From Sandaracinus amylolyticus (GTDB lineage: Bacteria; Myxococcota_A; Polyangia; Polyangiales; Sandaracinaceae): a DNA stretch of 64,000 nt. Below are positions 1 to 12,347 of this stretch, one piece after another. The translations under genes and the position numbers were made by a program. The notes under the pieces are model-generated. The model worked only from the letters and a program-made list of their open reading frames with translations, made no database searches and was not told the DNA's origin. The stretch is from positions 558,001 to 622,000 of the forward strand of contig NZ_CP011125.1 in NCBI RefSeq assembly GCF_000737325.1, in the 5' to 3' direction. Position 1 is the stretch's first letter. Every line of letters begins with the position of its first letter.

Positions 1-1830
1 CTCTCGATTATCGTCGGGAGCTGGACGGGCTCGACCGGCTTCGGCGCGACCATCGCCACACACGACGAGCACGCCCTCATCGGCAATGAGGTGGATGGCG
101 ACGTCGGGGGGGAGAACTTCGCCGCGTCGGGTGGCGTCGTGCGACCCATCGCGATCGTAGAGCCCGACGCCGACGGCTGGTACGTCGCGATCGCCGTCGA
201 GGACATTCCTGGAAACGTGTCCGCCCTTCGGATCTCCCCGGATCCTGGCATCGTGATCGACGCGCAGTCGCTCCCGACACGCGTCGCGGACGACGAGCTC
301 GGCGTCGCCACGGCGATCGGCGACTCCGATGCCGATGGAATCCCGGACCTCTGGCTCGGGGCACCTGCTCGAGGCAGCACCGAGTCCGCGGGACAAGTCA
401 TCGGGTACCGCGGCGTGTACCAGCCCCACGATCCCGACTACTACTACTCCGAGGAGGTCAACAATCATGTGCTCTTCGACGACGAGCACGTGGTGTTCGA
501 CCAAGAGCTCGCGGCGTGTGACCGGTGCAGGGTCTTCTCGCTCGACGACGGCGAACCGTGCGCCGATGGCGTCTGCGTCGAGCTCGACTGCACGGAGCTG
601 ACCGGCTGCGGTGACGGGTGGCCGAATGCTGGTCCTTCGCCGTCGCGGGAGCATTGCGACGACCACAATACGAGCGACGGAGACGCGTGCTCCAGTACGT
701 GTGAGCCGACTGCGTTCGTCATCGCCTCGCGCGAGTCGCGCGTCGATGCGCCCGGCAGCAGTCGAACGATCGCGCTCGACGAGACGGGCGCGGCACTCGT
801 CGTGTGGACTGCCGAGCTAGATGCTGCGACCGAAGTGCGGGCGCGCCGCTACACGCGCTACGGCGTCGAAGTCGACGGTGGCGAGGACGCGACACCGATC
901 CGCATCGCGTCGATGCCCGGACCGGGTTGGGATCCGCAGCCGGTCGCCGTCGGACTTCCCGGTGGCGGCTGGCGCGTCGCGTGGACGCAGCCCACTGGCG
1001 CCGAGGCGAGCGCGGTCGCGCTGCGCAACGTCGCCGTCGACGGCAGTCTATCGCCCACGATTCAGCCGAGCGCCGGCAGCGTTCACGCCGCGGATCCCGC
1101 TCTTCTGGCGTTCGATGGAGGCGCGGCGGTGCTGTGGACCGACGCGACCGACGCTCGCTCGCCACGCGCGATGTTCCAGGCTCTCGACGGCGCTGGACGC
1201 CCCGCGGGCACACCGGTGTCGCTCGATACGCGAGCGAGCGCCGGCGCGGCTGTCGCGATGACCGCTGACGGTGCGCTCGTCGCTTGGGTTCGTGCGCCCG
1301 AGGCGCTCGGCGACCGCAGCCACATCGTCGGTATGCGCTTCGGCGATGGCCCGATCGACGCCACGCCTTTCGAGATCGGCACCGGGATCGGCCCGATCAC
1401 CGTCGCCTCCGACGCCGCGGGATTCGCGGTCGCGTGGACTGGGCACGCGTTCGACGCCGCAGGCGACATCTATGTTCGGCGCGTTCCCGTCGCCGGCCCG
1501 CCGACGGTTCACAGCGAGACACGAGTGACGGGCCGCAGCGCGAATGGACGCCCGCACATCGAGCAGAGGCCATCGATCGCATTCCGCTCGGACGGGTGGA
1601 TCGTCGGTTGGGAAGAGCCGACCGAGGGTCGTGTTCGGCTGCAGGCCGAGGTCGCACTGCCGGCTGAATACGAGATGTATCTCGAGTCGCAGCTCGTAGG
1701 CGGCGCTCAGCGGGATCTCTCGTTGACCGGCTCGAGTCGTGGAACGTGGGTCATCTGGAGTGACGCACGAGCCGACTTGTCGCCCACGCCGGCGCGCTCG
1801 ACGCGCGGCTTCATTCTTCACGCGTACTGA
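1..1830 (+). CDS. Surface/secreted FG-GAP and Cys-rich repeat protein, 5' partial
   Basis: The frame is open to the first base of the window, so the true start and any signal peptide lie upstream; 609 residues are visible. Around residues 109-123 an acidic DSDADGIPDLWLGAP segment matches FG-GAP/VCBS-type calcium-binding repeats. Around residues 203-236 a CGDG...CDDHNTSDGDACSSTC segment matches the myxobacterial Cys-rich repeat (DUF4215 type). The C-terminal two thirds has repeated beta-propeller-like blocks with conserved Trp (AWTG, VVWT, VIWSDAR). The protein is probably exported and extracellular or envelope-bound; no enzymatic motif is visible. Its stop is 9 bases before the start of the large RHS gene, so the two are probably cotranscribed. 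Molecular role unknown. Confidence 0.8.
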   Translation, partial: LSIIVGSWTGSTGFGATIATHDEHALIGNEVDGDVGGENFAASGGVVRPIAIVEPDADGWYVAIAVEDIPGNVSALRISPDPGIVIDAQSLPTRVADDELGVATAIGDSDADGIPDLWLGAPARGSTESAGQVIGYRGVYQPHDPDYYYSEEVNNHVLFDDEHVVFDQELAACDRCRVFSLDDGEPCADGVCVELDCTELTGCGDGWPNAGPSPSREHCDDHNTSDGDACSSTCEPTAFVIASRESRVDAPGSSRTIALDETGAALVVWTAELDAATEVRARRYTRYGVEVDGGEDATPIRIASMPGPGWDPQPVAVGLPGGGWRVAWTQPTGAEASAVALRNVAVDGSLSPTIQPSAGSVHAADPALLAFDGGAAVLWTDATDARSPRAMFQALDGAGRPAGTPVSLDTRASAGAAVAMTADGALVAWVRAPEALGDRSHIVGMRFGDGPIDATPFEIGTGIGPITVASDAAGFAVAWTGHAFDAAGDIYVRRVPVAGPPTVHSETRVTGRSANGRPHIEQRPSIAFRSDGWIVGWEEPTEGRVRLQAEVALPAEYEMYLESQLVGGAQRDLSLTGSSRGTWVIWSDARADLSPTPARSTRGFILHAY

Positions 1831-1839
1831 GGGGCGGCG

Positions 1840-4800
1840 ATGAGCGCTCAGAATGATCGGAGAGCCACGTTCGCCGCTCGCGCGCTCGCCGCGTCCATCG
1901 CGACGCTCCTCGTCTGGACGCCAGCAGCGCCAGTCGCGCGCGCGGACGATGGCGACGGCGAATCGCCCACGACCGATGGCGACCCCCGGGTCGTCGAAAT
2001 CAGCGACGAAGCGCGCGCGCAGATCGAGGACGCGGTTCGTGATGGCAACCCCGCCATCGACGCGGAGCACATTCCCAATCTCCCCGAGGTGGCTGATCCA
2101 ACCGAGGCTCCGGGGGACGGCGAGGCACCGACCGACGACATTGCGCCGCTCGCACTGCCCGGCGGTGAAGCGCGCACGGCGGTGACCCCTCAGGCGATCT
2201 CGCTCCCGTCGGCCGAGGGCTCCGTCGAAGGAATGGGCGAGTCATTCGCCCCGATTCTCTCATCTGGCACGGCGACCTTCAGCGTCCCGATTGCGGTCGC
2301 GCCAGGGCGGCGTGGAGTGCAGCCATCGCTTGCGCTCTCGTACTCCAGCACGAGCGGCAATGGGCCGGTCGGGTTCGGGTGGGGTCTCGCGGCGCCGTTC
2401 ATCGCGCGGCAGTCGGATCGTGGATTGCCGCGATATGTCGATGATCGCCAATACCACCCCCAGGAAGACCGCTTCCTCTACAACGGCGGCCAAGAGCTCG
2501 TGCCCGTCGATTCCGCCGCGATCGCCGCAGTCGATCAGCGCGCGGCACAGAGCGGAGCCGATGCGTCGCAGGTTCCCGATGACGTGGCCGGATGGCAGCA
2601 ATATCGCGCACGCGTCGAAGGCGCGTTCATGCGCTTCTTCCGCTCGCCCGACTCGACTCGTTGGGTCGTGCAGAGTCGCGACGGAACCCGCTTCGACTTC
2701 GGCCTGCTCGGCTCGGGGGAAGGACCCACGGATGCGGTGAGCGCATCGATCCGCGCGCTCGAGATCGACCCCGAGTCGTCCGAGGCCGATCCCCGAGTGG
2801 CGCGCTGGTCGCTCACGAGGATGAGCGACGCGCACGGCTCGACCGTCTATTACGGCTATCGGTACGATCGAGGACAGTCGTATCTCGAGACCATCCACTA
2901 CCTCGCGCCCCACACGTGCGCAGGAGCGGATGTCGAATCGACGCGGGAGTGTCTCGAGCCGCTCTCGGCCTACGGCGCACGCGTGCGTCTCGTCTACGAG
3001 AATCGTGAAGACGTATTCTCGTCGTTCGCCACGGGCTGGAAGATCGAGACCGCGCTGCGGCTTCGGCGTGTCGAGATCACGGCGTCGAGCGGCGTCGGCC
3101 GCACCCTCGTCCGCCGATATCACCTCCGTTACGACCCGACTTCGTTCCACTCGCTGCTGTCCGAGGTCCAGGTCGAAGGGCGTCCCGAGCTCGCGAACGC
3201 GGAGCTCGGCGTCTCCAAGGGCCGGACGGATATCAACGAGAGCGCGCTCGACGATCGCATCCAGGGGCGCGTCCTTCCCCCCATGCGCTTCGGCTATTCG
3301 ACGATGCCGGCGAGGGGTGAGCAGATCCCGGGATTCGGAGGCGTCGACGCGACGGCACACCCCGTCGAGCACAGTCCGCCGCACTCCGTCGACGAAGCAC
3401 GTGCCGATCTCTTCGACGTGAACTCTGACGGTCTGCCCGACCTGATCGTCACGGATCCCGCTCGCTACCGCACGCGCGAGGGCGAGCCGGCGGTCGGCGT
3501 GTTCTTCAATGGCTTCACCGGCTCGAGCGCGGCGCCCGCGGGGGCGACGGCGCACTTCTCGGGCGCGATCCCGATGCCGATGGACCCGCGCATGTCCGCG
3601 GTGCTCTCGCTGTCGAACCCGAACGTCGTCCCGATGGACATCGACGGCGACGGGCGCAGCGACATGCTGCACATGCCGAGACTGCGCACGTACGGATGGT
3701 TCACGCCGACTCGCGGGCAAGACCCTGCAAGCGGCGCAGTGGTTTCGCCAGCGTCGCAGGACTGGCGCTGGACCTACGCGCAGACCGAGCTCCCCGCCGA
3801 CGACTTCGATCCGCGCGTCGATCTCGGGCGCGACGCGCAGCACCTCGAGATCGTCGACGTCAACAACGACCATCTGATCGACATCGTGCGAACCACCGGC
3901 ACGGTGATGCAGACCTGGGTGAACCTCGGGTGGTTGCCCGGGGGCGACGGCCGGTTCGGTAGCTACCGATACGTCGACGACCACTGGGAGCTCTCGACGC
4001 AGCCCATCGAGTCGTGCCTGCTGCAGTCCGGAACTCCGGTGGATTTCGAGAACGCAGAGACCCGTTTGGCCGACATGAACGGCGACGGGCTGCTCGACAT
4101 CGTCGAGATCCAGCGTGGCCGTGTTCGCTATTGGCCCGGTCGCGGCGAGGGCAGCTGGGGCGAGGGCCCGCACGAATGCGCGCGCGGCGAGGGCGCGAAT
4201 CGTTACATCGAGATGGCGACTCCGCCCGCGGAGCTGAACGTAGAGCTCGATGGGGTCTCACTGACCGACGTCAACGCCGATGGCGCGACCGACGTCGTGC
4301 AGATCCGGTTCGACGCAGTCGACGTCTGGTTCAATCGTGCAGGACGCGCGTTCACGCAGCGGCTGATCGCGCGCGGAACGCCGCCGACGCCCAGCTTCGT
4401 GCCGCGAACGCGTTTCGCGGACATCGACGGTAGCGGCACGACCGACATCGTCTGGGGCACGGCGAACGACTGGCGCTACGTCGACCTCGCCGGCGGCCGT
4501 CGGCCGCGCCTGCTGGTGCGCGTGGAGAACGGGCTCGGCGCGCAGACCGACATCGGCTACGGCTCGAGCGCGGAGGACTACGTCACCGACCTGGCGGCGG
4601 CGCAACGATGCACCAGCTGCGAGCGGTTCACGTGGGGCCGTGCCGACGGTGGGCACAGCGCCCGGCTCGAGGAGCTCGCCGGAACCGAGACCTGGCATTC
4701 GGCAGGCAGCCCGGTGATCTCCACTGTCGTGCGTTCCGTGACGACGAGCGACCGGCTCGAGTTGCTCGGCCGGGAGCCGCACGTCAGCACCACCAACTTC

Positions 4801-7800
4801 GCCTATCACGACGGATACTACGAAGGGATCGAGCAGGAGTTCCGAGGCTTCGGCGCCGCTGATGCACAAGCAGTCGGTGACTGGAACCACCCGACTTCGT
4901 TCACGCGCACCTATTTCCACCAAGGTCGCCGACCCCAATCGATCGCCGACGATCGACTCGCCGACAATCCCTACGAGGCACTCAAAGGACGTGAGTTCCT
5001 CACTGAAACGTTCGATGAACGAGGCGTCTATCTCTCGAGCGCACACGCCACGCTGACGAGTCGGAATCTCTACCAGGGCCTCGATGGCCGGTGGATCCAG
5101 TACGCGTTCGTGTCGGAGGCGAACGAGCTTCGCTACGACACGGCCGTATGGGCTGCCAGCGCGGAGGAACTGGAGCTGACCGACGTGTCGTTCGAGGCGT
5201 GGGGCACCACCTCGTGGTCGCAGACGTCGATCGTTCAGCGGCGGGCGCGCATCCGCGGACAGCACTTCGTTCGCATCAAGACGACCTACGACGAAGTCGA
5301 TTCGCTCGGGCAAGTGCGCCGGCAGACGGCGCATGGCGCGATCGACGGCGCGATCCCGGTCGACGATGTCATCGTGACCCACACGACGCCCGTGCTGCGG
5401 AACCCGGCCGAGTGGATTTGGCGGACGGGCTCCACGTGGATCACGGGGACGTCGGACGGTGTGGCGCAGGGACCTCTGCGCGAGACGATCAACGAGTACA
5501 ACGACGCCGGTGACGTGGTGCTCTCGCGCCAGGTCGTCGGCCCGCTGCGCGCGTACACGTTCGGCGGTGATGGCTCGACCGAGGGCCCTGCGATCCAGCA
5601 GCTGCAGGTGAATCCGAGCTCGACGCCGGGTGTCTCGTTGGACGACGACCTGGTGGGCTCGTCGCTATACGACGCGTGGGGCAACGCGCTCGCGAGCTGC
5701 GTCGGAGCGGACATCTCGGAGCTCGACCCGAGCACGATCGCCGCGCGCCCAGCGGGGTGTCTGCGGTACGCGCGCGTCAGCTACGACGCGGACTACGCGC
5801 AGCTCGCCGAGACCGAGACGACCCACGTGTCGACGTCGGGTGTGACGACGCTCTCGACGTCGGGCACCTGGGACCGCGGTCTTGGCGCAGTTCTGAGCGC
5901 CACCGATCCCAACGGCCTCGTGACGAGCGTGACCTACGACGGCCTCGGCCGGCTGGTCGCCGTCGTCCCGCCGCGTGCCGAGGGATGTAGCGATGACCGG
6001 CCGACGACGCGCATCGCCTACGAGCTCACCGGGAACGCCGGCGCCGTCCCGCTCAGCCGGGTGATCACGACGACGGAGCTCGATTGTGACGCGGAGTACG
6101 GTGAAGAGGGCGGCTCTCTGGTCGCGATCTCGTACATCGACGGCCTCGGTCGCGCGCGAGCGGGCCTGTCGACGGGCGATGCTCCGGGTGAGTGGACTCG
6201 GAGTGGCCTGTCGACGCTCGACGCGAAGGGGACCGTCCGTCGCGCATATCAGCCGGACGTCTACGTAGGCTCGGAGACCTCGCTCGCCGCAGTGCTCGCG
6301 CTGCCGCGCACCGTCGCGTCGCCGAGCGGCTTTCCGGCGTTCGCCGAGGACGACATCCCGTACACCGTCACGCGCCACGACGCGTTCGGTCGCACGATCG
6401 GCCAGCACGCCGAGGACGGCAGCTACACCTCGCAGAGCTTCCACGCGCTGTCGGTCGACGTCTGCGACGCGCTCGACAACGACTCGAGCTCCGGGTTCTA
6501 CGGTACGTGCACCACCTCGCGGAGCGATGGTCATGGGCGCGTGACCGATCAGATCCTGCGCACGTACCACGCAGACACCGGCGCTCCCGAGCAACACCGA
6601 CTCTGGTCGTACTACCGAATCGACGGAGTCGTGACCGATCTCGTGCGCGCGCGGTCGAGCGCCGGAGTCCGTCCTGCGCTCACGGCCGTGCCGAGCCTGG
6701 CAGATCCGCACGTTCATCGCGTTTTCCACTACGACACGCTGGGCCGTCGAATCGGCACCGAGGACCCGGACACCGACTCGCGCGAATCGGGCGCCACGGC
6801 CGCGACGCGAACGTGGCGATACCTCTTCAATCGCGCAGGTGACCTCGTCGCAGTGCGCGATCCGCGCGGCTGCGGCCAGAACTTCTTCTACGACCTCGGG
6901 GGTCGACTGCTCGGAGAGCAGTACGTCAGCTGCAGCGAAGCGGTCTCGAGCCGCGCGGAGTTCGGTCTCTACCAGCTGCCCATCGGCTCGATCTCGATGG
7001 TCGAGCAGACCGCGATCCAGCGCGTCGACGTTCGCTACTGGTACGACGAGACGCCGCCCACGTTCATCACGATCCCGAGTCGTGGCGGCGGAATGCTCGG
7101 CCGGATGATCGGAATCAACGACCGAGGGCAGCGCTCGTTGTTGGCGTACGATGCGCGCGGCAACGCGGTGTGGACCGCGCGTCAGGTTGCCGTGCTCCCC
7201 GATGCTCCGGCGCTCGTCGCGGGCCCGGCGCGAACGGCGCCCGGTGATGACCGGCCGAGCTGGACCGAAGCACCGATCGCCGCCAACCGCGTGGTGACCT
7301 ACGCGACGCTGCGGACCTACGTGCGGAGCGCGCGTTTCGATCACGCAGGTCGCGGCACTGCGCTGGTGCTCCCGCGCGATCACACGTGGACGGGCACGGG
7401 GCTGCCGCCGACGATCGGCGGCACGCTCGGCTTCAATCGGCGCGGCCTGCCGATGCATGCACGCGTGACCATCGGGTGCGATCCGACCACCGACGCGAAC
7501 GCATGCCAGTCGCACTCCGGCACTCGCGACGTCATCTCCGAAGTGCAGTACGCGCGCGATGGCCTGGTGCTCGGGACGACGTGGGGCGATACGACGACCT
7601 CCACCGGAGCGACGCGCGCGCCGAGCGTCTCGACGACGCAGTACGACGTGCGTCGCCGCCCCGTTCGGATGATCACGACGCGCACGCCGACGGGCACCGA
7701 GCCGCGCTCGCTCGCAGCGGTGAGCACCGTCGTCGACCAGCAGCTCGTGTGGGACGCGGCCAGCAATCTGACCGAGATCATCGACCATCGTGACCCGACG

Positions 7801-9960
7801 GAGTGGGAGCCGGGTCATCGGCCCCAGAGCACGTACGTGATGCACGACGCGCTGTACCGCGTGATCGGCGCGTCGTTCAGCTACACCCAGGACAGCGGGA
7901 CTCGCACGACCGCGGACATCGCGACGGACTGGCGCGACGCGCAGGAGATCATCCGCGGCGACGAGGACGCCGAGAACCTTCGACCGAGCGCCGACCCGAT
8001 GCACGTCGAGCCCGCGCCGATGCTGCAGCAGCTCGAGCACCTGCCTGGACGCGTGCAGGACCTCTCGTGGCGCTGGGACTGGCTCGGCAACACGACGAGC
8101 TGGAACGACGACGCGGAGGTCTTCTACGAGCGCTCGATCGGCGCGATCACGAACGGCGTCGACCAGGGCGGCACGAGCCTGCGCCCGAGCGCGCTCTACG
8201 TCTCGAGCGACATCCCGACGCACGCGATGAGCACGACCGAGCAGCAGCGCGCGGGCTGGGTCGAGCTCGAGTACGGTGTCGGCGGCAACGTCACCTCGAT
8301 GACCGTGCACGGCCAGTGTCGCGACGCCGCCACGCAGACGTGCTCGGATCTGTCGACGACCGACCCGACCGCGCGCGCGAATCACCTGCGCACGCACTGT
8401 CGCTGCGAGAGCGAGCAGTACTACCAGTATCGCTGGGACGAGCTGAATCGCCTCGCCGAAGCGCGCCGCTGGGACCGCTTGGCGCCCGCGACGCAGTGGT
8501 CGCTGAAGGTGCGTCAGCGTTACCGCTACGACGGCGCGAACGTCCGCGTCATCAAGGCGACGATCGAGCCCACGAGCGAGACCGACGCCGGCCCACCAGG
8601 CGCGCTCGACGAGCGCATCGCGCTCTATGTCTTCCCAGGCGACTACGAAGTGCGCGGGCTCCGCCGCGACGCGAGCCAGTACGTCGCGCGCACCGGCCAG
8701 TACGACCACGTGGAGACGCAGTACGTCGTCGCCGGCGCCCGGATGGTCTGGAGGCACGCGGCTGACCCCGAACTGCTCGACGACGCGCGCAATCGACGGA
8801 TGACCGTCGCGCTCACCGACGTCATCCAGACCACCGCTGCGAGACTGGATCTGCTCAGCGGCGACCTCGTCGAGGCGAGTACGTATTACCCGAACGGGGC
8901 GCGGCAGACGCTCCTCATCGACGAAGAGGATCCGAGCGCGACCGAGCCCAACGGCTTCACCGGCAAGGAGGCCGACGAGGAAGTCGGGCTGACCTACTTC
9001 GGTGAGCGCTATTTGATCGGGCGGGCCGGGCGGTGGACATCCCCCGATCCTCTGCACGTCCACGACGCAGGTGGCGGTGAGAGCCTAAACGCGTACCACT
9101 ACGTCGCCGGGAACGTGTTCCAAGCTCGAGATCCCTTAGGACTCGACGCTGACGACCTCTGCGTTAGCGTCGGATTCATGTGCAATACCGGCGCGCCGCG
9201 GGCTGGCGACCTTACACGAAGCCGGGAGGCCTTCGAAGCCCGCCCGTACGTGCCTCAGGTTGGTGCGTCAGGCGTGACGATCGGCTACGGGTACGATGCC
9301 GGAGCGCGAACACCTGCTCAGGTTCGTCAGCAGTTCCAAGCGGCAGGGATCTCGCCCGAGCAAGCGAGCACATTCGCGACCGCGGCTGGCCTCCGGCGAG
9401 ACACGCCACGAGCGCAGGAGCGGCAAGCTCGAGATCGAGAACGGATGGGTCTGTCTCCGGTGGCGGACGGCAGTCCGCGCACCGCCGACGCCTGGCTTTC
9501 CGCACACCCGAACGGCGGGGGCGTTCAGATAACGCGGGAGCAAGCCGAAGCGCTCCTGCAAGCGGAGTTCGCGAGGAAGCACGAGATGGTGCGCCGAGTC
9601 ATGCTCGAAGGTGACACCGTGACCGACCGTCAGTACGATGCCCTCCCCCTGTCGATCAAGGAACTGCTGACAGATCTCTGCTACGTCGGACAGCCATTCT
9701 CGGCGAGAAGCGATGAGCTACGCGAGATGGTGCACGGGTGGTACAACCCCGAAGGCGCCGACGACCTCGCGACGGAGGCCGACATGCTGGACGACATGCG
9801 AGGGTTCATCCAGGCTCTCCCAGAAGACTTGCAGGGGCAGGGTGGTCGCACCGAACGGACGGCATTCATCGATGAACGGCTTCGCGAAATTCGCCCTGCT
9901 CAGCCCGACTCGGCAGACGCAAGCACCTCAGTGACGACCCAGCCGGCGGAGGCCCAGTGA
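1840..9960 (+). CDS. Sec-exported SpvB/TcdB-RHS polymorphic toxin with a pesticin-like muramidase tail
   Basis: This 2,706-residue protein starts with a Sec signal peptide (about residues 1-36, ending PVARA). A SpvB-type domain begins near 131 (SGTATFSVPIAVAPG). FG-GAP/VCBS repeats with DxDxDG loops lie near 526, 599, 746, 810 and 861, followed by the TcdB-type middle region (GLGAQTDIGYGSS, about 899). YD/RHS repeats run from about 1366 (YDGLGRL) to the RHS core. The core carries D2403-PLH and D2431-PLG, the places of the paired DPxG motifs at which related proteins are cut. The variable tail (2437-2706) contains E2463/E2466, then GVTIGYGYD with T2480 and D2486, and later ITREQAEALLQ. This resembles T4-lysozyme/pesticin muramidases, whose Glu, Thr and Asp are catalytic. 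Inferred role: a delivered cell-wall-cleaving toxin. The RHS call is firm; the tail assignment is moderately sure. Confidence 0.9.
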   Translation: MSAQNDRRATFAARALAASIATLLVWTPAAPVARADDGDGESPTTDGDPRVVEISDEARAQIEDAVRDGNPAIDAEHIPNLPEVADPTEAPGDGEAPTDDIAPLALPGGEARTAVTPQAISLPSAEGSVEGMGESFAPILSSGTATFSVPIAVAPGRRGVQPSLALSYSSTSGNGPVGFGWGLAAPFIARQSDRGLPRYVDDRQYHPQEDRFLYNGGQELVPVDSAAIAAVDQRAAQSGADASQVPDDVAGWQQYRARVEGAFMRFFRSPDSTRWVVQSRDGTRFDFGLLGSGEGPTDAVSASIRALEIDPESSEADPRVARWSLTRMSDAHGSTVYYGYRYDRGQSYLETIHYLAPHTCAGADVESTRECLEPLSAYGARVRLVYENREDVFSSFATGWKIETALRLRRVEITASSGVGRTLVRRYHLRYDPTSFHSLLSEVQVEGRPELANAELGVSKGRTDINESALDDRIQGRVLPPMRFGYSTMPARGEQIPGFGGVDATAHPVEHSPPHSVDEARADLFDVNSDGLPDLIVTDPARYRTREGEPAVGVFFNGFTGSSAAPAGATAHFSGAIPMPMDPRMSAVLSLSNPNVVPMDIDGDGRSDMLHMPRLRTYGWFTPTRGQDPASGAVVSPASQDWRWTYAQTELPADDFDPRVDLGRDAQHLEIVDVNNDHLIDIVRTTGTVMQTWVNLGWLPGGDGRFGSYRYVDDHWELSTQPIESCLLQSGTPVDFENAETRLADMNGDGLLDIVEIQRGRVRYWPGRGEGSWGEGPHECARGEGANRYIEMATPPAELNVELDGVSLTDVNADGATDVVQIRFDAVDVWFNRAGRAFTQRLIARGTPPTPSFVPRTRFADIDGSGTTDIVWGTANDWRYVDLAGGRRPRLLVRVENGLGAQTDIGYGSSAEDYVTDLAAAQRCTSCERFTWGRADGGHSARLEELAGTETWHSAGSPVISTVVRSVTTSDRLELLGREPHVSTTNFAYHDGYYEGIEQEFRGFGAADAQAVGDWNHPTSFTRTYFHQGRRPQSIADDRLADNPYEALKGREFLTETFDERGVYLSSAHATLTSRNLYQGLDGRWIQYAFVSEANELRYDTAVWAASAEELELTDVSFEAWGTTSWSQTSIVQRRARIRGQHFVRIKTTYDEVDSLGQVRRQTAHGAIDGAIPVDDVIVTHTTPVLRNPAEWIWRTGSTWITGTSDGVAQGPLRETINEYNDAGDVVLSRQVVGPLRAYTFGGDGSTEGPAIQQLQVNPSSTPGVSLDDDLVGSSLYDAWGNALASCVGADISELDPSTIAARPAGCLRYARVSYDADYAQLAETETTHVSTSGVTTLSTSGTWDRGLGAVLSATDPNGLVTSVTYDGLGRLVAVVPPRAEGCSDDRPTTRIAYELTGNAGAVPLSRVITTTELDCDAEYGEEGGSLVAISYIDGLGRARAGLSTGDAPGEWTRSGLSTLDAKGTVRRAYQPDVYVGSETSLAAVLALPRTVASPSGFPAFAEDDIPYTVTRHDAFGRTIGQHAEDGSYTSQSFHALSVDVCDALDNDSSSGFYGTCTTSRSDGHGRVTDQILRTYHADTGAPEQHRLWSYYRIDGVVTDLVRARSSAGVRPALTAVPSLADPHVHRVFHYDTLGRRIGTEDPDTDSRESGATAATRTWRYLFNRAGDLVAVRDPRGCGQNFFYDLGGRLLGEQYVSCSEAVSSRAEFGLYQLPIGSISMVEQTAIQRVDVRYWYDETPPTFITIPSRGGGMLGRMIGINDRGQRSLLAYDARGNAVWTARQVAVLPDAPALVAGPARTAPGDDRPSWTEAPIAANRVVTYATLRTYVRSARFDHAGRGTALVLPRDHTWTGTGLPPTIGGTLGFNRRGLPMHARVTIGCDPTTDANACQSHSGTRDVISEVQYARDGLVLGTTWGDTTTSTGATRAPSVSTTQYDVRRRPVRMITTRTPTGTEPRSLAAVSTVVDQQLVWDAASNLTEIIDHRDPTEWEPGHRPQSTYVMHDALYRVIGASFSYTQDSGTRTTADIATDWRDAQEIIRGDEDAENLRPSADPMHVEPAPMLQQLEHLPGRVQDLSWRWDWLGNTTSWNDDAEVFYERSIGAITNGVDQGGTSLRPSALYVSSDIPTHAMSTTEQQRAGWVELEYGVGGNVTSMTVHGQCRDAATQTCSDLSTTDPTARANHLRTHCRCESEQYYQYRWDELNRLAEARRWDRLAPATQWSLKVRQRYRYDGANVRVIKATIEPTSETDAGPPGALDERIALYVFPGDYEVRGLRRDASQYVARTGQYDHVETQYVVAGARMVWRHAADPELLDDARNRRMTVALTDVIQTTAARLDLLSGDLVEASTYYPNGARQTLLIDEEDPSATEPNGFTGKEADEEVGLTYFGERYLIGRAGRWTSPDPLHVHDAGGGESLNAYHYVAGNVFQARDPLGLDADDLCVSVGFMCNTGAPRAGDLTRSREAFEARPYVPQVGASGVTIGYGYDAGARTPAQVRQQFQAAGISPEQASTFATAAGLRRDTPRAQERQARDRERMGLSPVADGSPRTADAWLSAHPNGGGVQITREQAEALLQAEFARKHEMVRRVMLEGDTVTDRQYDALPLSIKELLTDLCYVGQPFSARSDELREMVHGWYNPEGADDLATEADMLDDMRGFIQALPEDLQGQGGRTERTAFIDERLREIRPAQPDSADASTSVTTQPAEAQ

Positions 9961-10802
9961 GTGGGCGCCACGCAAACGCTCGCGAAGGCGCGGCGCACAC
10001 GCCGAGCTTCCGTCGAGATGTCGTCGTACTGGGACTTCTCGTCGGGGTCGCGGTTGCCGGGTTTCCCGCGTGCGACACGTCGCGCTCACAAGCCCAAGGC
10101 ATTCCCGCGCGTGGCGAATCGGCGGAAGGTCCTGCGGCCTCGAGAGCGTCCTCATCGGAGGCACGGCGAATCGCCGCCGACGCTTGTGCGACGGAGTGCC
10201 CGCCCCGGTCACTCACTGCGCTCGGACGCTCGACGACGAGATTCCCCGTGACCGCTCGCATGCCCGAGATCTGCGAAGCTGTCGCGCGGATCTCGGACGG
10301 GACGGCGGATGAGCAGCCGCCGATGTGCGCCGTCGATCGTCTCGCCGATGGTTTCATCACGGTCGAGAGTCAAGAAGGAGACCTCGTCGAGCTCTTCGTC
10401 GGTATGGTTCAGCCGGCCGACCGAGTCGTGATCCTCGGTCGGCTCGACCTGTTCGTGCTGAATGCCCAAATGGACCACGTTGTCGAGGGTGTTCGAGTCG
10501 AAACTCGCGCGTTGGCCGGACGCGAGGTGATCAAGATCACCGCAACCGCTACCGACATGCCGGCGCGCGAGACGATCGACGAAATTTCCAGGCGGACAGA
10601 GCGAACGATGTTCTGCTCGCGGAGTCGTGCTGGCGCTGTCCCTAGCTGCCATTTCGCAATCACCACGAGCAATGCGGTGATCGGGGAGCCTGGTCGAAAT
10701 GACTTCGAGCTCGTCGATGACGTGAGTGCAAGCGGAGAACTGCGGCTGCGACTCGCTGGGAGTCCCCCCGACTGTGCTTGCTTCAGAGCCGCTCTCTGGT
10801 GA
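9957..10802 (+). CDS. Exported protein, candidate immunity partner of the RHS muramidase
   Basis: The GTG start overlaps the stop codon of the RHS gene (GTGA), so translation is probably coupled. The 281-residue product has a basic N-terminus, a hydrophobic segment (VVVLGLLVGVAVAGFPAC, about residues 22-39) and a Cys at its end, so it is a lipoprotein or a protein with a Sec signal; the lipobox (FPAC) is imperfect. The mature part is a single globular region with several Cys residues and no family that I recognise. A small gene placed directly behind a polymorphic toxin is normally its immunity gene. A periplasmic location would fit protection against a peptidoglycan hydrolase, as known for the pesticin immunity protein Pim. 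Function is inferred from position only. Confidence 0.7.
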   Translation: MSGRHANAREGAAHTPSFRRDVVVLGLLVGVAVAGFPACDTSRSQAQGIPARGESAEGPAASRASSSEARRIAADACATECPPRSLTALGRSTTRFPVTARMPEICEAVARISDGTADEQPPMCAVDRLADGFITVESQEGDLVELFVGMVQPADRVVILGRLDLFVLNAQMDHVVEGVRVETRALAGREVIKITATATDMPARETIDEISRRTERTMFCSRSRAGAVPSCHFAITTSNAVIGEPGRNDFELVDDVSASGELRLRLAGSPPDCACFRAALW

Positions 10803-11007
10803 GCCGGCGAGGGCTCTCGTGAGTTCGGAGCGCATACTGGCGCCCCGAGCCCGCCGCGGGCAGGCCGCACGCGTCCGCGCAACCCCGAGGTCCGGCACCG
10901 CGTCCCGTTCGTTCTGTGAACAGGCCGTTCGGTCACGCCCACGTGCAAGGTGGTCGTTACGCGCTTCTCTTCCGCGCGCCAGGCGCGATCGCTTACGCTT
11001 CGCCGAG

Positions 11008-11475
11008 ATGTCCGCCGACGTCGTGGAAGCCCTCGGCAAGATCCAGCTCTTCAACGGCATCCACCCGAAGGGTCTGGAGCGCATCGCGTCGATCTGCTCG
11101 GAGGAGACCTATCGCCTCGGCGACGTCGTGTTCCGCGAGGGCGATGTCGGCGACAAGCTCTACCTGATCCTCGACGGCAAGATCCGCATCTCGCGTGAGG
11201 TCTCGGGCATGGGCGAGGAAGCGCTCGCGGTGCTCGGCGCGGGCCAGGCGTTCGGCGAGATGTCTCTCATCGACGACTTCCCGCGCAGCGCGGACGCGCG
11301 CGTGCACGAGCGCTGTCGGCTGCTCGTGCTCACCAAGGAAGCCCTCGAGGATCTGCTCTTCCTCGACAAGGATCTCGCCTACGAGATCCTCTGGAACTTC
11401 GTGCGCATCCTGAGCTCGCGGCTTCGCGAGACCAACGACAAGATGACGTTCTTGTCGGTCACCGGGAAGTTTTGA
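11008..11475 (+). CDS. Cyclic-nucleotide-binding domain protein
   Basis: The 155-residue protein is almost entirely one cNMP-binding domain of the Crp/Fnr/PKA-R fold. It shows the LFNGIHPKGLERIA entry helix, FREGDVGDKLYLILDGKIRI strands and the phosphate-binding cassette FGEMSLIDDFPRSADA. There is no helix-turn-helix after the domain, so it is not a Crp-type transcription factor; it may be a stand-alone regulatory subunit. I chose the ATG at 11008 because the domain begins directly after it and the upstream frame has no family-like sequence. Its last codons overlap the start of the next gene (TTGA), which suggests that the two products work together. Confidence 0.85.
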   Translation: MSADVVEALGKIQLFNGIHPKGLERIASICSEETYRLGDVVFREGDVGDKLYLILDGKIRISREVSGMGEEALAVLGAGQAFGEMSLIDDFPRSADARVHERCRLLVLTKEALEDLLFLDKDLAYEILWNFVRILSSRLRETNDKMTFLSVTGKF

Positions 11476-12347
11476 CCCACGAAGGCGCGCACTGCGGCGT
11501 GCACGAGGCGCGCGATGCGCGCTTCACCTGCGAGCGCTGCGGCACCTTCGGCTGCATCGAGTGTCGGTTCGGCGGCGAGCCTCCCGAGAACGCGCCGCCG
11601 CGTCTCGCGATTTGCGTCGCGTGCGCGAAGGACGGATTCGCCGAGCCGATCCCGTGGGAGCGCCGCAAGGAGCTCGGCATTCGTCTCGCGTTCATCGAGA
11701 CGACGAAGCTCGCGACGCGAGAGCCGACCCGCTTCTTCCGCACGCCGGCGATCGAGAAGGGCCCGACCGGCGCGCTCTTCTACGGCCTCGGCGCGTACGC
11801 GCTCGGACAGATCACGCTGCTGCTCTCGATGGGTCTTCTCATGGCGGCGGGCGGCGCGGTCGCGGGCATCGCGACCGAAGAGCCGATGGTCGCGGGCGTC
11901 CTCGGCGCGTACGGCTGCGCGATCGCGGGGTTCAGCCCGTTCTTCGTCGCGCAGGGCATCGCGCAGACGCTGCTCGCGGTGATCATCGCGGCGGGCGCGT
12001 CACACGCCACGCTCGTCGTGATGAAGCGCGCGAAGGGCAAGTTCGAGAGCACGCTGCGCGCGGTCGGATACAGCTATGCGCCCTACGTATGGCTCGCGCT
12101 GCCGGCATGCGGCGGGCTCATCGCGTACGTGTGGATGCTCGCGATCGAATTCCGCGCGATCCGCGAGACGCATCAGTGTGGCAGTGACGCCGCGGCGCTC
12201 GCGGTGTTCGGCTATCGCGTACTCCTCCTGCTGCTCTTCATCGGCCTCTACGTCGCGATCGGCGTGCTGATGTTCCTCTACATGCCGGGCCCGCGCCCCG
12301 GCGTCTCGCCGTTCGATCCCGCGACCACCCCGGTCTCCGGCTCATGA
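11472..12347 (+). CDS. Zinc-binding N-terminus plus Yip1-like membrane protein
   Basis: The TTG start overlaps the stop of the cNMP-binding gene by 4 bases. The first 55 residues carry a B-box-like zinc-binding set (C8, H11, C20, C23, C28, C31, C48, C51). After a linker there are about five hydrophobic segments (ALFYGLGAYALGQITLL, MVAGVLGAYGCAIAGF, IAQTLLAVIIAAGAS, YVWLALPACGGLIAY, YRVLLLLLFIGLYVAIG), the layout of the Yip1 domain. Many myxobacteria have such zinc-finger/Yip1 proteins, but their job is not established. Cytoplasmic-membrane location is a safe inference. A hairpin downstream probably ends the transcript. Confidence 0.75.
   Translation: MTHEGAHCGVHEARDARFTCERCGTFGCIECRFGGEPPENAPPRLAICVACAKDGFAEPIPWERRKELGIRLAFIETTKLATREPTRFFRTPAIEKGPTGALFYGLGAYALGQITLLLSMGLLMAAGGAVAGIATEEPMVAGVLGAYGCAIAGFSPFFVAQGIAQTLLAVIIAAGASHATLVVMKRAKGKFESTLRAVGYSYAPYVWLALPACGGLIAYVWMLAIEFRAIRETHQCGSDAAALAVFGYRVLLLLLFIGLYVAIGVLMFLYMPGPRPGVSPFDPATTPVSGS

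What the first reader, a model, noticed from the sequence alone, without database searches (positions are those of the whole stretch)
9148..9960. RHS toxin tail that looks like a pesticin/T4-type muramidase
The tail after the D2431-PLG motif has a Glu (E2463 or E2466), then GVTIGYGYD in which T2480 and D2486 are six residues apart, and later ITREQAEALLQ and LPLSIKELLTDLCYVG. As I recall it, pesticin has the same Thr-x5-Asp spacing. Muramidases as RHS tails on a Sec-exported, SpvB/TcdB-type scaffold are, as far as I know, rarely described.
Basis: partly seen in the sequence, partly recalled or inferred. Interest (0 to 1): 0.75.

Follow-up and report, generated by a model that had tools for sequence, protein, structure and literature searches.

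The report
RHS toxin with pesticin-type muramidase tail
A bacterium (probably a myxobacterium) carries a giant exported toxin whose swappable end is a cell-wall-cutting enzyme related to pesticin and phage lysozyme, followed by a likely self-protection gene; it is a new but recognisable member of the bacterial 'polymorphic toxin' arsenal.

Summary
Residues 2436-2706 of the 2706-aa RHS protein (window 1840-9960) are a pesticin/T4-type muramidase domain. Single-sequence Pfam hits are below cut-off, but a profile of 82 relatives finds pesticin first in the PDB (3e-19). An AlphaFold2 model (pLDDT 86.7) superposes best on pesticin (Z 13.2, 182 residues; T4 lysozyme about 9.3). E2463, T2480 and D2486 match pesticin E178, T201 and D207; E2466 is not the catalytic one. 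The T-x5-D spacing alone is chance-level.

The tail is a swappable cassette. A congeneric genome has the same scaffold (78% DNA identity) up to base 9148, then a different tail and downstream gene, before homology resumes at 10984 (94%). Inside the cassette, a gene overlapping the toxin stop by 4 bp (9957-10802) encodes a probably exported protein: the likely immunity protein, so far an orphan. Related scaffolds carry many other tails.

The closest relative of the tail is also an RHS tail, on a Methanophagales archaeon contig. Verdict: a new member of a known kind, an antibacterial RHS polymorphic toxin with a murein-cleaving tail on a Sec-exported SpvB/TcdB-type scaffold. Activity, delivery and immunity are inferred, not shown.

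The parts
1840..9960 (+). RHS toxin gene, 2706 aa; N-terminal Sec-type signal peptide (hydrophobic stretch FAARALAASIATLLV, then ...PVARA-DD)
   Evidence: SpvB, FG-GAP_3, TcdB_toxin_midN, RHS_repeat by Pfam; Rhs_assc_core by NCBIfam
2263..2883 (+). SpvB domain (residues 142-348)
   Evidence: Pfam PF03534 E 1.2e-29
4360..4926 (+). TcdB_toxin_midN domain (residues 841-1029), with FG-GAP_3 repeats before it
   Evidence: Pfam PF12256 E 7e-21, PF13517 E 5.9e-15
8923..9144 (+). RHS repeat-associated core ending at the DPLGL junction (residues 2362-2435)
   Evidence: TIGR03696 E 5.3e-14
9145..9957 (+). Pesticin/T4-type muramidase tail (residues 2436-2706)
9226..9228 (+). E2463, predicted catalytic acid (pesticin E178)
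   Evidence: invariant in 82 sequences and not part of the search pattern; E-to-P distance of 9 as in pesticin E178-P187
9277..9279 (+). T2480 (pesticin T201)
   Evidence: part of the seed pattern, so its conservation is partly circular
9295..9297 (+). D2486 (pesticin D207)
   Evidence: part of the seed pattern, so its conservation is partly circular
9847..9849 (+). R2670, near-invariant Arg of the C-terminal lobe
9957..10802 (+). Putative immunity gene (281 aa, GTG start overlapping the toxin stop as GTGA), predicted exported or lipoprotein
   Evidence: position, overlap and hydrophobic N-terminus; no Pfam match, no credible homologue in 183 genomes
9149..10983 (.). Exchangeable toxin-immunity cassette
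   Evidence: homology to the syntenic locus of G002 ends at 9148 and resumes at 10984; GC3 drops from 0.84 in the scaffold to 0.72 and 0.69
1..1830 (+). 3' part of the upstream FG-GAP gene (957 aa in the full genome), conserved upstream partner of this scaffold

Best explanation
The gene encodes a Sec-exported RHS polymorphic toxin. Its SpvB / beta-propeller / RHS scaffold carries a C-terminal pesticin-type muramidase, probably released after the DPLGL junction. Once delivered to the periplasm of a competing or prey bacterium, the tail is predicted to cut the beta-1,4 bond between MurNAc and GlcNAc in murein (E2463 as acid, T2480 and D2486 in the active site) and lyse the cell. The overlapping downstream gene (9957-10802) most likely makes the exported immunity protein that protects the producer's own periplasmic murein. 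Shown here by computation: domain identity, fold, conserved triad, cassette exchange, gene overlap. Inferred: enzyme activity, proteolytic release, route across the outer membrane, target range, immunity.
For: Pesticin and Phage_lysozyme both hit, in collinear order, below cut-off. Full-length relatives with invariant E, T, D. Profile to pesticin 3e-19. Model pLDDT 86.7 with pesticin as best superposition; the pesticin E178A, T201A and D207A entries in that list are titled inactive mutants. A pesticin-like VgrG tail has demonstrated muramidase activity, needs the Asp equivalent to D207 and is neutralised by the product of its downstream gene (PMC9927483). Cassette exchange between congeneric genomes at a syntenic site. 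Many different tails on 49-83% identical scaffolds, several followed by short overlapping genes with signal sequences. An Enterobacter plasmid pairs the same domain with a 4-bp-overlapping LprI-type lysozyme inhibitor gene.
Against: No activity data. The single sequence does not reach the Pfam cut-offs. The Gly that usually follows the catalytic Glu is Ala here. The putative immunity protein has no recognisable homologue and its single-sequence model is uninformative (pLDDT 38.5). How a Sec-exported scaffold reaches another cell's periplasm is not established.
Confidence: 0.85

Rival explanations
1. The tail is a genuine muramidase fold but works on the producer's own wall or during export (a space-making or secretion-assisting murein hydrolase), not as a toxin.
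For: Phage and secretion-associated lysozymes share the fold; the protein is Sec-exported and so meets its own periplasm first.
Against: The tail sits at the hypervariable end of a scaffold whose relatives carry unrelated tails, and is exchanged together with its downstream gene at a syntenic locus. A housekeeping or export role would not be swapped for unrelated domains.
Confidence: 0.06
2. The tail kept the fold but lost or changed catalysis (binding-only or degenerate domain).
For: Long branch, unusual composition, below-cut-off scores, EA instead of EG after the catalytic Glu.
Against: All three catalytic residues are kept, with the near-invariant Pro, Gly and Arg; the frame is intact; other members lack the Gly too (for example L098, L089).
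Confidence: 0.07
3. The tail is a muramidase, but the 9957-10802 gene is not its immunity protein (protection from elsewhere, or none needed).
For: No homologue, no fold and no interaction evidence; the lipobox is imperfect (FPAC).
Against: It overlaps the toxin stop by 4 bp, lies inside the exchanged cassette, has a signal-like N-terminus, and the congeneric cassette has a different exported protein in the same place.
Confidence: 0.15

Closest known systems
Pesticin C-terminal muramidase domain (Pfam PF16754; PDB 4aqn, 4epf)
   Same: Predicted fold, E/T/D triad, C-lobe motifs
   Different: About 15% identity by structure alignment; carried by an RHS scaffold instead of pesticin's own N-terminal part; extra length in the tail (271 aa)
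VgrG3cp, T6SS effector with a pesticin-like tail (PMC9927483)
   Same: Pesticin-like warhead at the C-terminus of a modular delivery protein, with a downstream immunity gene
   Different: Scaffold is VgrG of a type VI system; by the paper only T201 and D207 are conserved there, whereas here the Glu is present as well
RHS polymorphic toxins of the TcdB/TcaC export class (signal peptide + SpvB + integrin-like beta-propeller + RHS; PMC3482391)
   Same: Domain architecture, Sec signal, swappable tail, linked immunity candidate
   Different: The places I read in that survey list NlpC/P60, L,D-peptidase and glucosaminidase tails against murein; the word pesticin does not occur in its held text
RHS tail on a Methanophagales contig (L054)
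   Same: Closest sequence relative over nearly the whole domain (30%), same position after an Rhs core, sister in the tree (99/95)
   Different: Archaeal contig, 5'-truncated gene, no matching immunity gene seen
T4 lysozyme (Pfam PF00959)
   Same: Lysozyme fold, C-lobe match at residues 136-177 of P0002
   Different: Catalytic residue order differs: pesticin-type T then D, which this tail follows

Membership tests
Pesticin-type muramidase domain | Sequence match to the Pfam Pesticin model at its curated cut-off | tested here: not met
   17.5-17.6 bits against 25.8; so the claim of membership rests on the profile, fold and residues below, not on the Pfam cut-off
Pesticin-type muramidase domain | Homology by family profile | tested here: met
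   A2 profile finds pesticin first, 3e-19; 76 of 82 members match PF16754. The profile includes the query and relatives found with a motif taken from the family, so it is family-level evidence
Pesticin-type muramidase domain | Catalytic Glu, Thr, Asp in pesticin order | tested here: met
   E2463, T2480, D2486; roles of E178, T201, D207 from PMC9927483
Pesticin-type muramidase domain | Lysozyme-like fold closest to pesticin | tested here: met
   Foldseek top hit 4arl (E 3.4e-3, prob 1.00); VIA-align Z 12.5-13.2 for six pesticin entries, next best 9.3
Pesticin-type muramidase domain | Murein-cleaving activity | not testable with these tools
   needs an enzyme assay
RHS polymorphic toxin | Rhs repeat-associated core followed by a variable C-terminal domain | tested here: met
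   TIGR03696 E 5.3e-14; different tails on related scaffolds
RHS polymorphic toxin | Tail exchanged as a cassette with its downstream gene | tested here: met
   break at 9148, homology resumes at 10984; different tail and downstream gene in G002
RHS polymorphic toxin | Cognate immunity protein | tested here: inconclusive
   candidate by position and export signal only
TcdB/TcaC export class | Signal peptide + SpvB + beta-propeller + RHS | tested here: met
   class as defined in PMC3482391
Tc (ABC) toxin complex | A TcA partner with the TcA_TcB_BD domain | tested here: inconclusive
   none in the genome, but the control genomes rang nowhere either

The most novel reading that the evidence does not exclude
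The window's tail and the Methanophagales tail define an RHS-specific branch of pesticin-type muramidases, crossing from bacteria to methane-oxidising archaea, and the window's copy is displayed or delivered by a conserved three-gene surface operon (large helical lipoprotein, FG-GAP protein, RHS toxin) that brings a Sec-exported toxin to other cells by an undescribed route.
Probability: 0.15. Interest if true: 0.65.

Novelty: new member of a known kind. Interest (0 to 1): 0.42.

Why it matters
Murein-targeting tails on RHS toxins of the Sec-exported SpvB/TcdB type are little described, and none with a pesticin-type domain turned up in the papers searched. Because muramidases act only on murein, such a tail argues that at least some of these Tc-like scaffolds, often discussed as insecticidal or anti-eukaryotic, are used against bacteria and must deliver into the periplasm. 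An orphan immunity protein against a lysozyme-fold toxin would be a new kind of lysozyme inhibitor. A related RHS muramidase on an archaeal contig fits the recent report that archaea make bacteria-killing peptidoglycan hydrolases (PMC12352652).

Tried and rejected
Protein-only scan of genome contigs with the tail found no relatives; it worked once an alignment was used. PHROGs and NCBIfam gave only weak or irrelevant hits for the tail, and a single-sequence PDB search gave only chance hits. Weak hits L005-L010 in the relatives search (E 0.002-0.008) were not used. The immunity candidate: no Pfam family; a hit in G028 (6e-5) lies antisense to an oxidoreductase gene and was rejected; its single-sequence structure prediction failed (pLDDT 38.5). 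A search for a TcA partner was uninformative. Promoter and terminator scans of 9900-11100 found nothing. T-x5-D spacing as evidence was rejected as chance-level. E2466 as catalytic residue was rejected.

Full report
What is in the sequence. Window 1840-9960 (+) is one open frame of 2706 aa. It starts with a Sec-type signal peptide (and by inspection) and continues with SpvB (1.2e-29), FG-GAP repeats (5.9e-15), TcdB_toxin_midN (7e-21) and an RHS region that ends in an Rhs repeat-associated core at residues 2362-2435 (5.3e-14). The finding concerns the 271 residues after DPLGL.

Is the tail a muramidase? On its own it matches Phage_lysozyme (4.5e-4) and Pesticin (4.2e-3), both under their curated cut-offs; the two hits are in different parts of the tail and in the right order. 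I therefore collected relatives. The first scan with the single sequence failed. Seven homologues from the Polyangiales-type order of this genome, an Enterobacter plasmid and a Vibrio phage gave a seed alignment, and a second scan with it found 212 related loci, 80 kept, in bacterial and archaeal genomes and 23 in viral contigs.

In the resulting 82-row alignment E28, P37, S42-T45, G49 and D51 are invariant, and R235 and G82 nearly so. In protein numbering these are E2463, P2472, S2477-T2480, G2484, D2486, R2670 and G2517. The search pattern was SGVT[IL][GA]xG[YF]D, so the conservation of T and D is partly built in; that of E2463, P2472, G2517 and R2670 is not. Pesticin's triad is E178, T201, D207 (PMC9927483). 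In the profile alignment T201 and D207 fall on T2480 and D2486; E178 directly precedes the first aligned residue (G179), and the distance from E178 to P187 is nine, as from E2463 to P2472. E2466 is not conserved.

The alignment's profile finds pesticin first among all PDB sequences (3e-19), followed by phage lysozymes. An AlphaFold2 model of the tail with the alignment has mean pLDDT 86.7 and pTM 0.81. Foldseek ranks a pesticin entry first (E 3.4e-3, probability 1.00, TM 0.52 by query length). In the second look all six pesticin entries stand at Z 12.5-13.2 over 180-182 residues at 3.2-3.3 A, clear of the T4 lysozymes at about 9. I could not read the model's coordinates, so the superposition of the three side chains is inferred from the sequence mapping and the global alignment.

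Is it a polymorphic-toxin cassette? Of 23 related genomes searched, ten carry the scaffold. The best match is in a genome of the same genus (G002), at the same chromosomal place: DNA homology runs from window 497 to 9148 at 78%, stops, and resumes from 10984 to 12331 at 94% in the gene for a cyclic-nucleotide-binding protein. Between these points the two genomes have unrelated tails and unrelated downstream genes. GC at third codon positions falls from 0.84 in the scaffold to 0.72 in the tail and 0.69 in the downstream gene. Other scaffold relatives, 49-66% identical, carry further tails.

The downstream gene. The frame 9957-10802 begins with a GTG that overlaps the toxin's TGA (GTGA); the G002 cassette shows the same arrangement. 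It has a strongly hydrophobic N-terminal stretch (mean Kyte-Doolittle 2.79 over 15 residues, against a background of 0.58 +/- 0.41), as have several downstream proteins of other cassettes. Some of those end in a clear lipobox (for example LLAGC in G002); here the sequence is FPAC, so 'exported' is safer than 'lipoprotein'. Export fits immunity against an enzyme that acts in the periplasm. No homologue or fold was found. By analogy, the Enterobacter muramidase L016 is followed, with the same 4-bp overlap, by a gene annotated as an LprI-family lysozyme inhibitor, and VgrG3cp is neutralised by its downstream gene product (PMC9927483).

Mechanism. Established knowledge of the pesticin and T4 lysozyme families gives the chemistry: hydrolysis of the MurNAc-GlcNAc bond. 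Established knowledge of RHS proteins suggests a cage that holds the tail and a cleavage near the end of the core; neither was tested. PMC3482391 calls this scaffold type the TcdB/TcaC export class. How it crosses the outer membrane and enters another cell is unknown. Two genes upstream on the same strand may matter: the FG-GAP protein ending at window 1830 (957 aa) and a large protein with long helices and a lipoprotein-like signal; both have homologues upstream of the syntenic G002 scaffold, and the FG-GAP protein also near two other G002 scaffolds.

Relatives. Most relatives are T6SS-type, stand-alone, phage or multi-domain proteins. The one other RHS tail among those kept, L054, is also the closest by BLAST (30% over 240 columns, 9e-17) and its sister in a maximum-likelihood tree (99/95; both branches long, so long-branch attraction is possible). 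L054 lies on a contig of a Methanophagales archaeon; the same contig's argininosuccinate synthase is 98-99% identical to those of other members of the group, and none of 50 other genomes of that family has the tail. A chimeric contig cannot be excluded.

Known or new? Warhead and scaffold are both known kinds. The combination was not found in the literature searched, which covers open-access papers only. I rate it a new member of a known kind.

Noticed in passing
L054:1-1956 (Methanophagales archaeon contig QENJ01000254.1): An RHS-core protein with a pesticin-type muramidase tail on an archaeal contig (its ArgG is 98-99% identical to other Methanophagales); archaea lack murein, so this looks like an antibacterial weapon.
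   Followed up: partly
L186:7041-13838 and L184:4958-7831 (G000:C1 about 550040-559830); window 1-1830: A large protein with long helical stretches and a lipoprotein-like signal, then an FG-GAP protein, precede the RHS gene on the same strand; both have homologues upstream of the syntenic scaffold in G002. Possible display or delivery partners.
   Followed up: partly
L053 (G000:C1:7768000-7779500): A second scaffold copy in this genome (56% identical) whose frame stops after 1910 aa, before the RHS core; possibly a truncated or broken paralogue.
   Followed up: no
G002:C1 (L032, L041, L045, L048, L051, L052): At least six related RHS scaffolds in one congeneric genome, each with a different tail; several tails had no assigned family and may be undescribed toxins.
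   Followed up: no
L011-L014, L079, L125 (Polyangium and relatives): Pesticin-type domain at the N-terminus of 1650-1800-aa proteins that also carry further segments resembling cell-wall peptidases; a different architecture from the RHS tail.
   Followed up: no
L016:516-3238 (Enterobacter plasmid NZ_CP074166.1): Small plasmid with a pesticin-type muramidase overlapping by 4 bp a gene annotated as an LprI-family lysozyme inhibitor: a clean toxin-immunity pair on a mobilizable plasmid.
   Followed up: partly
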